Origin: a virus | IMG/VR virus record: IMGVR_UViG_3300017922_000010 | Span: 1 to 25,150 of that record | DNA length: 25,150 bases | Direction: 5' to 3' (one strand) | Part shown: positions 8,403-25,150 of the stretch, piece by piece | Layout: each line of letters opens with the position of its first letter | Position numbering within the stretch: the first letter of the stretch is position 1 | Made by a program: the position numbers and the translations under genes | The notes under the pieces: model-generated | Seen by the model: only the letters and a program-made list of their open reading frames with translations | Told to the model about the DNA's origin: nothing | Databases searched by the model: none

Positions 8403-8564
8403 ATGCCAACATACAAAAACGACTCTACCGCGGTGCGCAATGTAATCAACGCCTCGCACCAGTCCGTCTAGGTCCGGCCGGGCGAGACGGTCCAGACCCT
8501 GCAATTGCTCACTGATGCGGATTGGACCAAAACCGCAGATGCGCCGTTTTATAATAGGGATTCT
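8403..8564 (+). pseudogene. Small phage domain interrupted by in-frame amber
   Basis: From ATG 8403 (AGGTG upstream) the frame encodes MPTYKNDSTAVRNVINASHQSV, then TAG at 8469-8471, and continues without another stop as VRPGETVQTLQLLTDADWTK to about 8564, running on in frame into the next gene. The joined text reads like one small phage protein with a PGETVQT-type loop, so the amber appears to split a formerly continuous gene; CAG to TAG is the simplest change. Other genes here end normally in TAG, which argues against general amber recoding. Alternatives are a sequencing error, low-level readthrough, or a genuine 22-residue leader. Confidence 0.55.
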
Positions 8565-8861
8565 GTGGAGCGGTTTTCAGATTTTGCGGAAGAAGAGGGG
8601 CCGCTCGAGGGCGGCAAGGTCCGCCTGGATTCGATACTGAACACCGAAATCACAATAACCGGGTTCCGGATCCAGGCCAGCAAGTACAACGGCAAAAACG
8701 CGACAGGTAAATGTTTGACTGTTCAGTTTGAGCAAAACGGCGAGCGTCAAGTGTTCTTTACCGGATCGGATGTTTTAATTCATCAGTTCGAAAAGTACGG
8801 CGATCGCATCCCGTTCCTCGCTACACTGAAAAAGGTCGATCGTTACTACACACTGAGCTGA
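8565..8861 (+). CDS. Conserved small protein, paralogue of 24700 gene
   Basis: Function not recognised. The 98-residue product starts at GTG 8565 with AGGG at 8556-8559. This start is chosen because the paralogue at 24700 begins at the equivalent point (SVQRFSDFAEEHGPLEG against SVERFSDFAEEEGPLEG). The frame is also open upstream to a TTG at 8505 and to the amber at 8469. It is beta-rich: ILNTEITITGFRIQASKY, GKCLTVQFEQNGERQVFFTGS, IPFLATLKKVDRYYTLS. The pattern, with a paralogue adjacent to ssb, makes a small OB-fold-like or ssDNA-related protein conceivable, but that is a guess. This copy is full length and ends just before the connector genes. Confidence 0.7.
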   Translation: MERFSDFAEEEGPLEGGKVRLDSILNTEITITGFRIQASKYNGKNATGKCLTVQFEQNGERQVFFTGSDVLIHQFEKYGDRIPFLATLKKVDRYYTLS

Positions 8862-20848: not shown

Positions 20849-21511
20849 ATGCCTAAAACATATTCCCGCGCCGGACTTACTGGCGACACAACAGACACCC
20901 TGGACGGTATTGACGGGGCCGAGCTTGTAGACGGTGATCGCGCAATCGTGATCACTGCAACAGACGCCTACTTGTTTCGCTTGAACGCTACCTCCGGCGC
21001 ATCCCAGGTTGTGCCCCAGGTCATTTCTCCGACTATCAATGCGGACAACAAGCGATGGGAGCTTGTCACAGTCACGCAGCAACAGAGCATTGAGGACGTA
21101 CTAACGCTGCAAGGGCTTACTGTCGAAAACGATGCTAAAATCAAAAACGCGCTGGAAGTGCTGCAAAAGCTGACTGTTGGCGGTGAACTCGACGTATCCG
21201 CCGCCGCAACGATAGCAGGCGCACTCACAGTGCAAAATGACATTGAGGCTACCGGTTCTATCAATGCCGCCGGATTTACAGTCAATGGCACTCCTGTCGG
21301 CTCCAGCACTGATACATTTTGGGAGTCTGACGCCGAGGGCAACATTTCATACAACGCGGGCCATGTTTTTACCGGCCCTATCAAGCTCAACGCACACACC
21401 ATATCTGCCAATACAACCGTTCCAGCGGGCTATCACGGCATGGCTGTAGGTCCGCTGGATATTGACGCAGACGTAACAATTTCAAGCAATAGTATTCTGG
21501 AGGTAATCTAA
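20849..21511 (+). CDS. Tail fibre/spike base protein
   Basis: A 220-residue acidic protein. The N-terminal 1-75 is a globular part (LVDGDRAIVITATDAYLFRLN). Regular short strands follow (LTVGGELDVSAAATIAGALTVQNDIEATGSINAAGFTV over about 110-150), repeats typical of trimeric beta-helical phage fibres. The C-terminus (ITISSNSILEVI-like end, about 205-220) is the kind of short helix-capping end seen in fibre shafts. Its TAA overlaps the ATG of the DGR target (TAATG, 21509-21513), so the two are translationally coupled and may assemble into one fibre. The exact role is inferred. Confidence 0.65.
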   Translation: MPKTYSRAGLTGDTTDTLDGIDGAELVDGDRAIVITATDAYLFRLNATSGASQVVPQVISPTINADNKRWELVTVTQQQSIEDVLTLQGLTVENDAKIKNALEVLQKLTVGGELDVSAAATIAGALTVQNDIEATGSINAAGFTVNGTPVGSSTDTFWESDAEGNISYNAGHVFTGPIKLNAHTISANTTVPAGYHGMAVGPLDIDADVTISSNSILEVI

Positions 21512-22866
21512 TGAGTCAGTTTAATCTGGGCAACAAATCAGACGCAAGTACACCATCAAACGGCAAAACTGCTATTTTTTGCAGCACAGGTGGCAACCTC
21601 GCAACGAAAGACGCCTCCGGCCAGGTGCGTGAGTACAGCCCTACACCTATCGAATCGGAAAACATGGTCTACGGGGTGCGGTGGAATACGACCACCGGCG
21701 ACCCTGACTGCGAGCCGGGAATCCTGGTCAACGGTTCTTTTGTGGGTATGGACTACCAAAACATGCCCGTGCATGAGCAAATGGGTCGGGGCCTACTCAC
21801 CGGTGATGGACAGTGGACGAAGCTCTCGCCGTACAACTCCGCGCAGCTCGAAGACGGGAGCACAGCAACCATAGACGGGACTGCCGGGCAGGTCATGGTT
21901 CGATCCCCGTATCGGTTTTATCAGAACATCCAGACGATCGGCGATTATGTCTATATGCTACTGAGTGAGCAGCCGTTCACATTCAACGGCGTGTCCGCCT
22001 GGGTCCCGCCGGTCTACATGGACGACGGATATTTTTTCGTCGGCGCGTTCCACGGCGTGGCGCTATCAGACAGCACCAGCTCTAACGTCGGCTCTTGCGT
22101 CAAAGACACAAGCGGGTACACGTCAAATAGTTACCCTGATCCTTTTACGAATATTACCATTGGCGCATCCCGCTCCCAGTGCAGTAATACAGGAGCGGTG
22201 TTTTGCCAGTACAGCAATGGGATGCACGATCTGCTGTATTTCTTGGCCGTGACCAAGTTTAAAACATTCGACGTGCAAGCCCAAATCGAGGGGCACACAG
22301 AGCGCAGCAGCTTTGATTATGCCCAGGCAACAAAAGCTGGGGCAACCCTGGCCCTTGGTGACTTTTCCGGCTCCATCTGGGACGATGATGCCGGAATGTA
22401 TATTGCCAACAGTTTCCAAGGCGTTGAGAACTTTTTTGGGAACACGTGGAAGTTGGTAGATGGTATCGCGTTTGATACCGACAACAACTACCGGGTGTAT
22501 GTCGCGCATGACCCGACAGTATGGAGCACCGCAGAGGCGGACATTTTGGCCAATTACATTGATACCGGCCACGCCCCTGGATGGGACGACAACGATGACT
22601 ATATCAAGTCTGTTGTTGGTAGCGGCAAGCACATCCCGTTATTCCCTGACGTTGTTGGCGGCGGTGCGGACAGTTCCACATACATCACAGACTACCTGTG
22701 GTCGTATCCGCTCGGTTCCGGTTGGCGGTTCTCGGGTGTCGGTGGGCGATCGGACGCTGCTCGTCAGGCGGGTCCCGGTGCTCGGGTTGTCTATCGCTCG
22801 TCCTCGGCTTCGGGTTCGCTTTACGGGCCGCGCTTGGCCGCCTATATCAGCCTGGCCAGCACATGA
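21511..22866 (+). CDS. DGR target: hypervariable tail fibre/adhesin
   Basis: A 451-residue probable receptor-binding protein whose C-terminal 57 residues are rewritten by the downstream retroelement. N-terminal 1-110 contains a fibre-type part (NLGNKSDASTPSNGKTAIFCSTGG spans 5-28). The middle is an aromatic-rich domain (PFTFNGVSAWVPPVYMDDG). The end has the C-type-lectin-fold pattern used by DGR proteins (LWSYPLGSGWRFSG near 397-409, then PRLAAYISL). Variable residues cluster in W/Y/G/S/A-rich loops. Variation encoded from TR Asn (AAY) codons includes Tyr, Gly, Asp, Ala, Val and Leu. The start overlaps the preceding stop. Bordetella phage Mtd is the closest functional analogy. Confidence 0.88.
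   Translation: MSQFNLGNKSDASTPSNGKTAIFCSTGGNLATKDASGQVREYSPTPIESENMVYGVRWNTTTGDPDCEPGILVNGSFVGMDYQNMPVHEQMGRGLLTGDGQWTKLSPYNSAQLEDGSTATIDGTAGQVMVRSPYRFYQNIQTIGDYVYMLLSEQPFTFNGVSAWVPPVYMDDGYFFVGAFHGVALSDSTSSNVGSCVKDTSGYTSNSYPDPFTNITIGASRSQCSNTGAVFCQYSNGMHDLLYFLAVTKFKTFDVQAQIEGHTERSSFDYAQATKAGATLALGDFSGSIWDDDAGMYIANSFQGVENFFGNTWKLVDGIAFDTDNNYRVYVAHDPTVWSTAEADILANYIDTGHAPGWDDNDDYIKSVVGSGKHIPLFPDVVGGGADSSTYITDYLWSYPLGSGWRFSGVGGRSDAARQAGPGARVVYRSSSASGSLYGPRLAAYISLAST
22695..22847 (+). repeat. DGR variable repeat (VR)
   Basis: This 153-bp segment in the 3' end of the target gene aligns without gaps to TR at 22890-23042. I count 29 mismatches, all at TR adenines: 21 A-to-G, 4 A-to-T, 4 A-to-C. The other 8 adenines and all 116 non-adenine positions match. 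Similarity begins at CCTGT and ends at CCTATAT, after which VR reads CAGCC and TR reads TGCAT. The adenine-free GCCGCGCTT near the 3' end fits the homing-initiation region. Confidence 0.97.
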
Positions 22867-22889
22867 TTCATATTTGGTTGCCTGATGCC

Positions 22890-23042
22890 CCTGTAGTCGA
22901 ATCCACTCGGTTCCGGTTGGCAGTTCTCGAATGTCAGTGAGCAATCGAACAATGCTCGTCAAGCAGGTCCCAGTGCTCGGAATGTCAATCAATCGTCCTC
23001 GAATTCGAATTCGAATTACAGGCCGCGCTTAGCCACCTATAT
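22890..23042 (+). repeat. DGR template repeat (TR)
   Basis: Invariant donor copy lying in the non-coding gap 42 bp after VR and 112 bp before the reverse transcriptase. Its RNA is reverse transcribed with errors at adenines, and the cDNA replaces VR. In the target frame it has nine AAY codons placed at diversified residues. It contains three tandem TCGAAT hexamers (22999-23016) and an in-frame TAG at 22894-22896 opposite TGG in VR. Confidence 0.97.
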
Positions 23043-23154
23043 TGCATTTTGCTTTTCGGCGCAGGTAACCTTGGCTCTAGCCAAAACAATACGAACTCTC
23101 GCGTGAGGTTAGTAGGGAAACCGAAAGCCTTGAGAGCAATATAGAATACTACCG
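23043..23154 (+). ncRNA. DGR RNA spacer between TR and RT
   Basis: 112 bp without an ORF. In characterised DGRs, sequence 3' of TR forms part of the structured RNA that binds the RT and primes cDNA synthesis. Here a small inverted repeat TTGGC-TCTA-GCCAA lies at 23071-23084. No clear promoter or strong Shine-Dalgarno precedes the RT ATG. The RNA role is inferred from position. Confidence 0.5.
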
Positions 23155-24216
23155 ATGAAGAGATACGGAAACCTATACAGCCAGATCGCAGACTACGACA
23201 ATCTGCGACTGGCTCACAAAAACGCGCAAAAAGGGAAGCGGCATTATCCTGAAGTGCAAAAAGTCAACGCCAGAGAAGACGAGTACCTTGCTGCGTTGCA
23301 ACGTCAACTTCAGGATATGTCGTTTAAAAACTCCGAGTACGAAACATTTATCAAGCGGGGTGCGAAAAAAGAACGCCTGATTTACAAACTGCCTTATTAC
23401 CCTGACCGCATCGTTCATCACGCAGTAATGAATGTCTGTGAGCCAATCTGGCAGCGAAGCATGATCCGCGATACCTATGCCGCATTGAAGGGGCGCGGCA
23501 TACATGATGGGGTGCGGCGCTTTAAGGGCTTCTTGCAAGACCGCCCTGGAACGATGATGTGCTACAAGTTTGATATTGCCAAGTTCTATCCTTCAATCGA
23601 CAATAACATACTGGCTGACTGGATATTGCCCCTTAAGATCAAATGCAAGCAAACTCTCGCGTTGCTGCGCGAGGTTGTGTTCAGCACAGATGGGCTGCCT
23701 ATTGGGAATTTCTTGTCGCAGATATTTGGCAATCTATTCCTGACGCCGTTTGATTGGTTCATGAAACAGGTGCAAAAAGTGCGCTACTATGCTCGGTATT
23801 GTGATGACATTGTGGTTTTGCACTCGGACAAGGCGCTCCTTCGAGATTTGGCCGGGGTCACACAGGAATGGCTGGCTGAAAACTTGAGACTGGGCATCAA
23901 AGGGAACTGGCAAATCTTCCCGCGCCTCCAGCGCCCCATAGATTTCCTGGGCTATGTGTTTTGTGATGGCTATACGTTGGTCCGTAAAGATATTGTCAAA
24001 CGCTTCAAGCGCCGGATTCAGCAGATACGCCAAAACTGGCGGCAAATGCCGGTGCAAAAAATCGTGAACACGTTGATGAGTTACTATGGCTGGTTCCTCC
24101 ATGCCAATGCGTGGGGGCTATGGAACAAATATGTCGATAACGAGATACGCTGTACCGTAGACACGGTGTGCCGAAATAACGGCCTCCACAATCCACTCCG
24201 GAGGATATATGCCTGA
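23155..24216 (+). CDS. DGR reverse transcriptase
   Basis: A 353-residue RT of the DGR clade, which copies TR RNA into adenine-mutated cDNA. The N-terminus MKRYGNLYSQIADYDNL and the AQKGKRH motif are typical of DGR RTs. Palm motifs: motif A Asp140 in YKFDIAKFYPSIDN; motif B GLPIGNFLSQ at 180-189, where SQ is characteristic of DGR enzymes in place of the QG of retrons and group II introns; catalytic YCDD at 215-218 (ARYCDDIVVL); then PIDFLGYVF at 261-269. A basic thumb (IVKRFKRRIQQIRQNWRQM) follows. All catalytic aspartates are present, so it should be active. The start has a weak ribosome site, suiting low expression. Confidence 0.96.
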   Translation: MKRYGNLYSQIADYDNLRLAHKNAQKGKRHYPEVQKVNAREDEYLAALQRQLQDMSFKNSEYETFIKRGAKKERLIYKLPYYPDRIVHHAVMNVCEPIWQRSMIRDTYAALKGRGIHDGVRRFKGFLQDRPGTMMCYKFDIAKFYPSIDNNILADWILPLKIKCKQTLALLREVVFSTDGLPIGNFLSQIFGNLFLTPFDWFMKQVQKVRYYARYCDDIVVLHSDKALLRDLAGVTQEWLAENLRLGIKGNWQIFPRLQRPIDFLGYVFCDGYTLVRKDIVKRFKRRIQQIRQNWRQMPVQKIVNTLMSYYGWFLHANAWGLWNKYVDNEIRCTVDTVCRNNGLHNPLRRIYA

Positions 24217-24697
24217 ATCAAAGCATTTCCCGCAGGTCCGTCAATTACAGGGCGGCGTCCTGGTTCCGTTCAACGTGCAGCAGCAAACGCGAACAGATGA
24301 GGACGGCGAGCAAACCACTTTTTATCGGTTCGGCCAGGTCAAACTGGAGCAACGAAACCTGCCAGCCCTGTCTCAAGTGCAGCACACCGCATGGCGCGAG
24401 CTACAACGTGCCCTGCACGATCACATCTATCCCCGCTATGACCAGGGCAGTCAAAGCACGATCCAGGCATACGCCCAACGCGCAGAGCGGCAGGGGCGGT
24501 CCGATATTGTGGCTGAGTGCGAAAAAATCATGGATTGGATTGATGCGTGCTTGATGTATTACTACGCGAAAAAGGACGCCATATATGCGGCGACAACCGA
24601 AGGTGAGTTGGTCGGCATTGCGTGGGATTTTGGGGCGGATGTGCCTTTCCCTGATGATGTGCTGCCGCTTAAAAATATCAAGGGGATGTTTGCGTAG
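24209..24697 (+). CDS. Unknown protein coupled to DGR RT
   Basis: A 162-residue protein, not recognised. The N-terminal part is beta-like (LQGGVLVPFNVQQQTRTDEDGEQTTFYRFGQVKLE), followed by a long helical part (LSQVQHTAWRELQRALHDHIYP, QSTIQAYAQRAERQGRSDIVAECEKIMDWIDACLMYYYAKKDAIY) and an acidic end. ATG 24209 overlaps the last eight bases of the RT gene and has CCGGAGG just upstream, so it is translationally coupled and well expressed. It does not look like Avd, which is a small basic four-helix bundle, but it holds the place where an accessory DGR protein could lie. A tail-fibre assembly or tape/fibre accessory role is equally possible. Confidence 0.65.
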   Translation: MPESKHFPQVRQLQGGVLVPFNVQQQTRTDEDGEQTTFYRFGQVKLEQRNLPALSQVQHTAWRELQRALHDHIYPRYDQGSQSTIQAYAQRAERQGRSDIVAECEKIMDWIDACLMYYYAKKDAIYAATTEGELVGIAWDFGADVPFPDDVLPLKNIKGMFA

Positions 24698-24699
24698 AT

Positions 24700-24909
24700 A
24701 TGTCTGTGCAACGCTTTAGCGATTTTGCGGAGGAACATGGCCCCCTCGAGGGCGACAAGGCCCGCCTGGATGCGATTTTGAACCACGAGGTATTGATTAC
24801 CGGCTACCGTGTCCAGGCCAGTAAATACGGCGGGAAGAACAAAAGCGGCAAGTGCTTGACGGTACAATTCGAGCTGCCGGAGGGGTGTTCCCCGCAGACG
24901 CGGGGATGA
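24700..24909 (+). pseudogene. Truncated paralogue of the 8565 gene
   Basis: Begins at ATG 24700 (MSVQRFSDFAEEHGPLEGD) and is clearly homologous to the 8565-8861 product through KCLTVQFE. The homology stops there. The frame runs into the first CRISPR repeat and ends at a TGA inside it, adding only LPEGCSPQTRG. The roughly 40 C-terminal residues present in the full copy (VFFTGSDVLIHQFEKYG to the end) are missing and do not reappear after the array. The gene therefore seems to have been cut at the junction with the mini-array. It may still make a 69-residue protein; function unknown. Confidence 0.65.
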
Positions 24910-24974
24910 TCCGCCGGACCGGGACGCTATTGCCGAGCAGGATGAGTGTTCCCCGCAGACGCGGGGATGATCCG
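24885..24974 (+). CRISPR. Minimal type I-E CRISPR array, one spacer
   Basis: Two identical 29-bp repeats (24885-24913 and 24946-24974) flank a single 32-bp spacer (24914-24945). The repeat starts GTGTTCCCCGC and ends GCGGGGATGATCCG; CCCCGC/GCGGGG form the stem around an AGAC loop. The 29/32 geometry and sequence match type I-E (E. coli style), with crRNAs read on the + strand. No leader, cas genes or third repeat is visible: the expected next repeat position is inside ssb. Confidence 0.9.
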
Positions 24975-24986
24975 ACCGGGGGTTAC

Positions 24987-25150
24987 TTAGAACGGTATAT
25001 CGTCCATCTCATTCGTGTTCGACGGAAACGCCAGGCCGGTGCCGCCCTGTTGCGGTGGGGTTTGCGCTTGTGTGTGTCCGCCGCTCTGTTTGCCCTGGCC
25101 CTTGCTGTCGAGGAACTGCACCCGATGGGCCTTGATCTCCGTACTGTAAC
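24987..25150 (-). CDS. ssb: Single-stranded DNA-binding protein, C-terminus (partial)
   Basis: Reading the - strand from the window edge gives 53 residues and TAA (complement of 24987-24989). It begins YSTEIKAHRVQFLDSK, the last strand of the SSB OB fold. A Gly/Gln/Pro-rich linker (HTQAQTPPQQGGTG) follows, and the protein ends NEMDDIPF, the acidic tip that docks SSB-interacting proteins. It binds ssDNA during replication and recombination. The 5' two-thirds lie outside the window. It converges on the late + strand genes, only 12 bp from the CRISPR-like repeat, so it begins the replication/early module or flanking host DNA. Confidence 0.92.
   Translation of the reverse strand, partial: YSTEIKAHRVQFLDSKGQGKQSGGHTQAQTPPQQGGTGLAFPSNTNEMDDIPF

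What the first reader, a model, noticed from the sequence alone, without database searches (positions are those of the whole stretch)
21511..24216. Complete diversity-generating retroelement in a siphovirus tail operon
VR (22695-22847) and TR (22890-23042) align over 153 bp without gaps. All 29 differences fall on TR adenines (29 of 37 A changed; 0 of 116 other bases changed), and an RT with the DGR motifs GLPIGNFLSQ and YCDD follows. This directly implies targeted hypermutation of the fibre C-terminus and thus receptor switching. The high fraction of altered adenines and pure A specificity suggest recent or ongoing activity.
Basis: partly seen in the sequence, partly recalled or inferred. Interest (0 to 1): 0.95.

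Follow-up and report, generated by a model that had tools for sequence, protein, structure and literature searches.

The report
Avd-less phage DGR with OB-fold partner
A lambda-like phage carries a standard gene-scrambling cassette (a diversity-generating retroelement) that rewrites the tip of a tail fibre, and its relatives show that this branch of the cassette travels, adjacent or fused, with a small uncharacterised protein predicted to be nucleic-acid-binding instead of the usual helper Avd.

Summary
VR 22695-22847 and TR 22890-23042 align over 153 nt without gaps; 29 of 37 TR adenines differ and 0 of 116 other bases (chance 2.6e-24). RT 23155-24216 belongs to the DGR clade. The target 21511-22866 models as a C-type-lectin DGR variable protein (best solved match TaqVP, Z 20.3; then Mtd). 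So it is a real DGR in a lambda-like siphovirus tail region: a new member of a known kind, architecture target-TR-RT without avd. "Recent or ongoing activity" is not shown for this phage: 78% changed adenines is just saturation. In relatives with identical TRs, VRs differ almost only at adenines. What goes beyond the known is a ~100-residue predicted OB-fold family (PHROG_19665, function unknown; window 8505-8861, plus a truncated copy 24700-24909 after the RT). In two scans seeded on it alone, 99 of 101 testable loci have a DGR RT within 1 kb, either before TR (Avd's place) or after the RT. In two Bacteroides phages/prophages it is fused to the RT C-terminus. No bAvd was found in 13 records tested. 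I infer it replaces Avd, probably handling TR-RNA or cDNA. I found no paper describing it, but the key survey (Wu 2018) could not be read.

The parts
21511..22866 (+). DGR target gene, 451-aa tail fibre/receptor-binding-like protein with CLec-fold C-terminus
   Evidence: VR in last 60 codons; PHROG_5302 tail protein 1e-43; AF2 model matches TaqVP (5vf4, Z 20.3) and Mtd (Z ~10)
22695..22847 (+). Variable repeat (VR)
   Evidence: 153-nt gapless match to TR; 29 differences, all at TR adenines
22890..23042 (+). Template repeat (TR), intergenic
   Evidence: a TR lies in the same place 5' of the RT in most related loci
23037..23045 (+). 5' arm (CTATATTGC) of a helix closing the TR-RT spacer RNA, overlapping the TR 3' end
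   Evidence: pairs with 23136-23144; own-locus pairing exceeds cross-locus pairing over 55 loci, 0 of 20000 permutations
23136..23144 (+). 3' arm (GCAATATAG) of the same helix, 10 nt before the RT start codon
23043..23154 (+). TR-RT spacer RNA (112 nt), likely RT docking/priming region by analogy with BPP-1
   Evidence: spacing 100-191 nt in nearly all relatives; function inferred
23155..24216 (+). DGR reverse transcriptase, 353 aa
   Evidence: RVT_1, PHROG_1423 4e-100, DGR clade apart from group II introns 100/99, 34% identity to BPP-1 Brt
24209..24697 (+). 162-aa ORF overlapping the RT stop; no known family; may be in the same operon
   Evidence: no Pfam, PHROG or NCBIfam match; no homologue in the RT-relative loci L002-L027
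24700..24909 (+). RT-proximal copy of the OB-fold DGR-associated gene, truncated after about 58 family residues
   Evidence: 77% identity over 57 aa to the 8505 copy; profile E 2.8e-9; sits in the canonical post-RT position
8505..8861 (+). Intact 118-aa OB-fold DGR-associated protein, 14.3 kb upstream of the RT
   Evidence: PHROG_19665 family; AF2 core pLDDT about 90, b-b-b-a-b-b; OB-domain matches

Best explanation
This is a diversity-generating retroelement of the avd-less target-TR-RT type in a lambda-like siphovirus. TR is transcribed; its 3' end pairs with the end of the spacer just before the RT gene, presenting the TR 3' junction to the RT (inferred by analogy with BPP-1). The RT copies TR and misincorporates opposite adenines, and the cDNA replaces VR in the last 60 codons of the fibre gene, varying residues of a C-type-lectin domain that probably binds the host (inferred). 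In place of Avd this DGR branch uses a ~100-residue predicted OB-fold protein that acts with the RT, most likely by binding TR-RNA or the single-stranded cDNA during synthesis or homing. Shown: VR/TR pattern, RT clade, target fold match, the gene association, the fusions, absence of bAvd. Inferred: that the OB protein binds nucleic acid, that it replaces Avd, and that this particular cassette still works. My confidence is 0.97 for a genuine DGR, 0.85 that the OB family is a DGR component, 0.5 for the nucleic-acid role.
For: DGR: 29/29 differences on A, p 2.6e-24; RT in DGR clade with BPP-1, VP58.5, ANMV-1, crAss LMMB and hankyphage RTs, group II introns apart at 100/99; target model's best solved matches are DGR variable proteins TaqVP Z 20.3 and Mtd Z ~10; A-only VR/TR pairs in nearly all RT relatives; seven sets of loci with 99-100% identical TR whose VRs differ 8-14 times at A and 0-2 times elsewhere, plus L002/L003 with 18:3. 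OB partner: only 2 of 50,697 phage records match by tblastn, both directly after a DGR RT; OB-seeded scans give an RT within 1 kb in 51/51 and 48/50 testable loci; 41 clusters at 70% identity, 38 with an RT seen; Bacteroidota profile scan hits 2 of 395 genomes, one beside and one fused to a DGR RT, 0 of 14 controls; RT-OB fusion in hankyphage p00 residues 345-423, E 1e-22; OB before TR/RT (Avd's place) in 58 members, after the RT in 54; bAvd rings in BPP-1 but in none of the 13 other records; OB-type topology and matches to PriB, RPA, POT1, Teb1 OB domains. Helix: own mean 5.16 vs cross 4.28 bp, 0/20000 permutations.
Against: The OB fold rests on a model and on middling matches (Z 5-7; Foldseek best E 0.06), so the fold call is probable, not proven, and a fold shows no function. 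Some close DGR relatives carry no recognisable OB gene (L005, L006, L009, crAss cr50_1, Perkons), so the protein is not universal in this RT branch. In this window the RT-adjacent copy is truncated and the intact copy lies 14.3 kb away. No VR-downstream hairpin was found. The spacer RNA of this one sequence is not unusually stable alone (z -0.64). The permutation test mixes related loci and does not fully remove shared ancestry. Activity in this phage is untested.
Confidence: 0.85

Rival explanations
1. The DGR is real, but the small OB-fold gene is only a neighbouring phage gene (for example a tail-region or replication gene) kept beside the cassette by synteny within a few phage lineages.
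For: Many loci are phage tail regions and the two scans used lineage-specific motifs; some DGR relatives lack the gene; an intact copy exists away from the RT in the window; L130 carries one with no RT in 4 kb upstream.
Against: The gene switches sides of the RT yet stays within 1 kb, spans archaeal viruses to Bacteroides prophages, and is fused to the RT in two records. The L003 stray copy is a decayed cassette that still holds TR sequence.
Confidence: 0.12
2. The cassette in this window is a decayed or crippled DGR: TR, VR and RT persist but homing no longer works because the accessory gene beside the RT is truncated and TR holds an in-frame stop codon.
For: Truncated OB copy 24700-24909; TAG in TR relative to the VR frame, the only case among 68 loci; truncation also in L002/L003.
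Against: RT ORF and fibre ORF are intact, VR is saturated with A changes, a second intact OB gene exists at 8505. The VR carries G at the TAG adenine, so homing past it has happened or the TR changed later.
Confidence: 0.2
3. VR/TR differences arose by ordinary divergence of a duplication, with selection or chance placing them on A.
For: None beyond the general possibility; A>G bias is 21 of 29.
Against: 0 of 116 non-A changes, p 2.6e-24, and the same pattern in nearly all RT relatives.
Confidence: 0.001

Closest known systems
Bordetella phage BPP-1 DGR (mtd-VR, avd, TR, brt)
   Same: A-specific VR/TR difference, intergenic TR upstream of RT, CLec target in a tail fibre, RT 34% identical
   Different: No avd here; an OB-fold family appears in its place; no VR-downstream hairpin detected
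crAssphage LMMB and other 'lineage 3' DGRs (PMC7290462, citing Wu 2018)
   Same: Architecture target-VR-TR-RT, no avd, tail-collar fibre target, RT 37% identical
   Different: LMMB carries no recognisable OB gene; whether the window RT falls in Wu's lineage 3 was not tested with their reference set
ANMV-1 archaeal virus DGR (PMC4372165)
   Same: Target-TR-RT followed directly by the OB-family gene AJP62065.1
   Different: Archaeal virus; the OB gene is annotated only as hypothetical protein in the record
Hankyphage p00 DGR (PMC6199706)
   Same: Same OB domain, but as a C-terminal part of the RT protein DAC76693.1
   Different: Fused rather than separate; the paper points to a separate small ORF near the RT as Avd-like by size and charge
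Known DGR accessory proteins Avd, HRDC, MSL (PMC10053308)
   Same: Small gene tied to RT and TR
   Different: Predicted OB fold, not the Avd bundle; PF22296 bAvd negative in the 13 records tested. One further Wu 2018 accessory protein without Pfam entry could be this family

Membership tests
Diversity-generating retroelement | VR/TR repeats differing almost only at TR adenines | tested here: met
   29/29 on A, 0/116 elsewhere
Diversity-generating retroelement | RT of the DGR clade adjacent to TR | tested here: met
   RT tree; 112 nt after TR. A first tree with very long branches (Drt3a, RT-Cas1) was unreliable
Diversity-generating retroelement | VR within the 3' end of a target gene, usually CLec fold | tested here: met
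   TaqVP Z 20.3, rmsd 3.6, 268 aligned; Mtd Z 9-10; model mean pLDDT 68, pTM 0.73
Diversity-generating retroelement | VR varies while TR is invariant in a population | tested here: inconclusive
   Met in relatives; no near-identical record of this phage was found
BPP-1-type DGR with Avd | avd gene | tested here: not met
   PF22296 negative in the 25-kb window, positive in BPP-1 control; the record may be a fragment
BPP-1-type DGR with Avd | hairpin just downstream of VR | tested here: not met
   no inverted repeat of 7 nt or more at 22800-22900
Avd-less target-TR-RT DGR (Wu lineage 3) | architecture target-VR-TR-RT without avd | tested here: met
   description of the lineage from PMC7290462
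Avd-less target-TR-RT DGR (Wu lineage 3) | RT inside lineage 3 of the Wu 2018 tree | not tested
   reference set not available; LMMB RT, placed in lineage 3 by its authors, lies in the same 25-row group (99/97) as the window RT
OB-fold nucleic-acid-binding proteins | five-strand OB barrel topology | tested here: inconclusive
   b-b-b-a-b-b model with core pLDDT about 90; many OB domains among the matches but Z only 5-7, Foldseek best E 0.06
OB-fold nucleic-acid-binding proteins | binds ssDNA or RNA | not testable with these tools
   needs a binding assay
PHROG_19665 | profile match | tested here: met
   9 of 10 aligned members, best 5.9e-36; window member weak at 0.001, linked through intermediates

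The most novel reading that the evidence does not exclude
A widespread branch of phage and archaeal-virus DGRs uses an OB-fold nucleic-acid-binding protein instead of Avd, encoded beside or fused to the RT, together with a TR-3'-end/pre-RT helix; it would be a further type of DGR accessory factor with a different way of handling template RNA or cDNA.
Probability: 0.5. Interest if true: 0.75.

Novelty: new variant of a known kind. Interest (0 to 1): 0.58.

Why it matters
About a quarter of DGRs lack a homologue of the known accessory gene (stated in PMC7290462), and how they work without it is open. A small protein that is nearly exclusive to DGR loci, takes Avd's place in the operon and is fused to the RT in hankyphage, a prophage of culturable Bacteroides, makes that question directly testable. 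It would also help annotate DGRs in metagenomes. The DGR in the window by itself is an ordinary, well-formed example.

Tried and rejected
Near relatives of this phage: a masked VR/TR pattern and the fibre protein found none in viral contigs, blastn none in phages. Rfam: no hit. PF05635 as an Avd profile did not ring even in BPP-1, so it was dropped for PF22296. A first RT tree including Drt3a and RT-Cas1 joined long branches (hankyphage with Drt3a) and was rebuilt without them. The mixed-family profile A1 was too diverse to scan with, so it was split into A2 and A3. A per-locus random-shuffle test of the TR/RT helix was not significant; only the position-restricted own-versus-cross test was, and I chose its windows, so it needs an independent set. 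Sequence search of the OB family against the PDB: nothing. Exact CRISPR-repeat and spacer searches: nothing. Wu 2018 (PMC5758913) is not held.
Full report
1. The observation. VR 22695-22847 and TR 22890-23042 match over 153 nt without gaps; 29 of 37 TR adenines are changed and none of the 116 other bases. The chance that 29 of 29 differences fall on adenines is 2.6e-24. Homology stops at both ends. No second VR exists in the window. The RT ORF runs 23155-24216 (353 aa) and the target ORF 21511-22866.

2. Genomic setting. The window is a virus record of 25,150 bases. Lambda-family portal, tail tube, minor tail L, NlpC/P60 and a gpJ-like tip protein precede the cassette, with terminase and tape measure. 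The siphovirus tail setting is therefore right.

3. RT and target. The RT matches RVT_1, PHROG_1423 at 4e-100 and is 34% identical to BPP-1 Brt. In a tree cleared of very long branches it groups with L003 inside a DGR clade that holds BPP-1, VP58.5, ANMV-1, crAss LMMB and hankyphage RTs, apart from group II introns at 100/99. The target model (28 aligned relatives, mean pLDDT 68, pTM 0.73) has as best solved matches the DGR variable protein TaqVP (Z 20.3, 268 residues), with formylglycine-generating-type CLec enzymes (Z 10-12) and Mtd (Z 9-10) next. It belongs to one target family with the targets of the RT relatives.

4. Activity. Nearly all RT relatives have an adenine-only VR/TR pair directly before the RT. 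In seven sets of loci with 99-100% identical TRs, VRs differ at 8-14 adenine positions and 0-2 others; L002 and L003's first VR differ 18:3. That shows mutagenic homing in the branch. For this phage there is no such pair: no near-identical sequence was found. The changed fraction (78%) equals the 75% expected at saturation, so it says nothing on timing. Changes lean to G (21 of 29, p 2e-5 against one third); this lean is shared by the window's RT relatives (156 of 224, window included) and weaker in the rest (450 of 1054). Selection on codons could contribute.

5. No Avd, but another gene. bAvd (PF22296) rings in BPP-1 and in none of the 13 other records tested, the window included. A small gene drew attention because the 118-aa ORF at 8505-8861 has a truncated paralogue after the RT at 24700-24909, and homologues beside the RT in relatives.

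6. Association test. tblastn with this protein hits only two of 50,697 phage records, ANMV-1 and vir525, in both directly after the DGR RT. A viral-contig scan seeded on the upstream type gave 53 loci; all 51 that extend far enough have a DGR RT 0.2-0.4 kb downstream. A scan seeded on the window type gave 51 further loci; 48 have the RT within 1 kb, one ends too early (L104), one is the decayed L003 copy (L147), and one has no RT (L130). Two genome loci (Methanosaeta and Bacteroides bins) also have it. An independent PHROG_19665 scan of 395 Bacteroidota genomes hit two, one beside a DGR RT and one inside an RT ORF; 14 control genomes gave none. At 70% identity there are 41 clusters: 26 after the RT, 10 before TR, 2 fused, 3 with no RT seen.

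7. Fusions. The hankyphage p00 RT (435 aa, DAC76693.1) carries the domain at residues 345-423 (E 1e-22; 7e-15 in the first profile round). A Bacteroides bin carries a 475-aa RT with the domain at about 345-463. Fusion in two proteins plus a switch of side is hard to explain by synteny alone.

8. Fold. The model core (residues 31-118) has pLDDT about 90 except for one loop, and strand-strand-strand-helix-strand-strand order. Second-look structural matches include many OB domains: RuvBL DII, PriB, RPA, POT1, HIN domains, Teb1, with Z 5-7. Foldseek alone is weak (best E 0.06). I take OB fold as probable.

9. RNA. In the window the TR 3' end (23037-23045) is perfectly complementary to 23136-23144, 10 nt before the RT start. 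Over 55 loci the pairing within a locus (mean 5.16 bp) exceeds pairing between loci (4.28), never reached in 20,000 permutations, with many different sequences making the helix. The windows were chosen after a looser look, so this is a lead. In BPP-1 the spacer folds, recruits RT-Avd and primes cDNA from an internal adenine (PMC12875486); a helix at the TR junction would suit such a role.

10. Mechanism. Most likely: TR-RNA folds so that its 3' junction meets the spacer; RT with the OB protein makes A-mutagenised cDNA; cDNA homes to VR. The OB protein would stabilise or present RNA or cDNA. Steps shown: repeats, RT clade, target fold match, variation in relatives, gene association. Steps inferred: priming, OB binding, receptor change, and function in this phage, where the RT-adjacent copy is truncated and the intact copy is 14.3 kb away.

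11. Novelty. The DGR itself is a new member of a known kind, of the avd-less target-TR-RT architecture described for crAssphage LMMB and lineage 3 (PMC7290462). I found no open paper joining DGRs with an OB-fold partner. One accessory protein of Wu 2018 without a Pfam entry is mentioned in PMC10053308 and could be this family; the source could not be read. I therefore rate it a new variant of a known kind and the fully novel reading at one half.

Noticed in passing
window 24885-24974: Two identical 29-nt type I-E-like CRISPR repeats with one 32-nt spacer (24914-24945) cut off the OB-gene copy; similar arrays sit on Acidiphilium, Acetobacter and Roseomonas plasmids. Either a phage-borne mini-array or an assembly junction; an SSB-like C-terminus (DDIPF) follows on the minus strand at about 24987-25150.
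   Followed up: partly
window 22894-22896 (TR): TR has an in-frame TAG relative to the VR reading frame (TGG in VR), the only such case among 68 loci; homing that keeps this adenine would truncate the fibre.
   Followed up: partly
L003 1-870 and 2953-6132: Duplicated cassette with complementary decay: copy 1 keeps VR and most of the OB gene fused to a 5' TR remnant (rest of TR and RT lost), copy 2 keeps TR and RT but a truncated OB gene; the one TR matches both VRs.
   Followed up: partly
L073 4324-4398 and 4839-4915: A second locus in which one TR matches two VRs.
   Followed up: no
L077 3940-4218 and 5912-6169: Two OB-family genes in one locus, one before and one after the RT.
   Followed up: no
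L006 4830-5099, L009 1679-1945, L015 6083-6346: DGRs without a recognisable OB gene share a different ~88-aa ORF directly after the RT; could be another accessory or a tail gene.
   Followed up: no
window 24209-24697: 162-aa ORF overlapping the RT stop codon, no known family.
   Followed up: partly
window RT relatives versus other loci: A>G share of VR changes is 70% in the window's RT branch and 43% elsewhere, perhaps a difference in RT error spectrum.
   Followed up: partly
L130 4046-4297: Single OB-family gene in a contig with no RT in 4 kb upstream and no VR/TR pair.
   Followed up: partly
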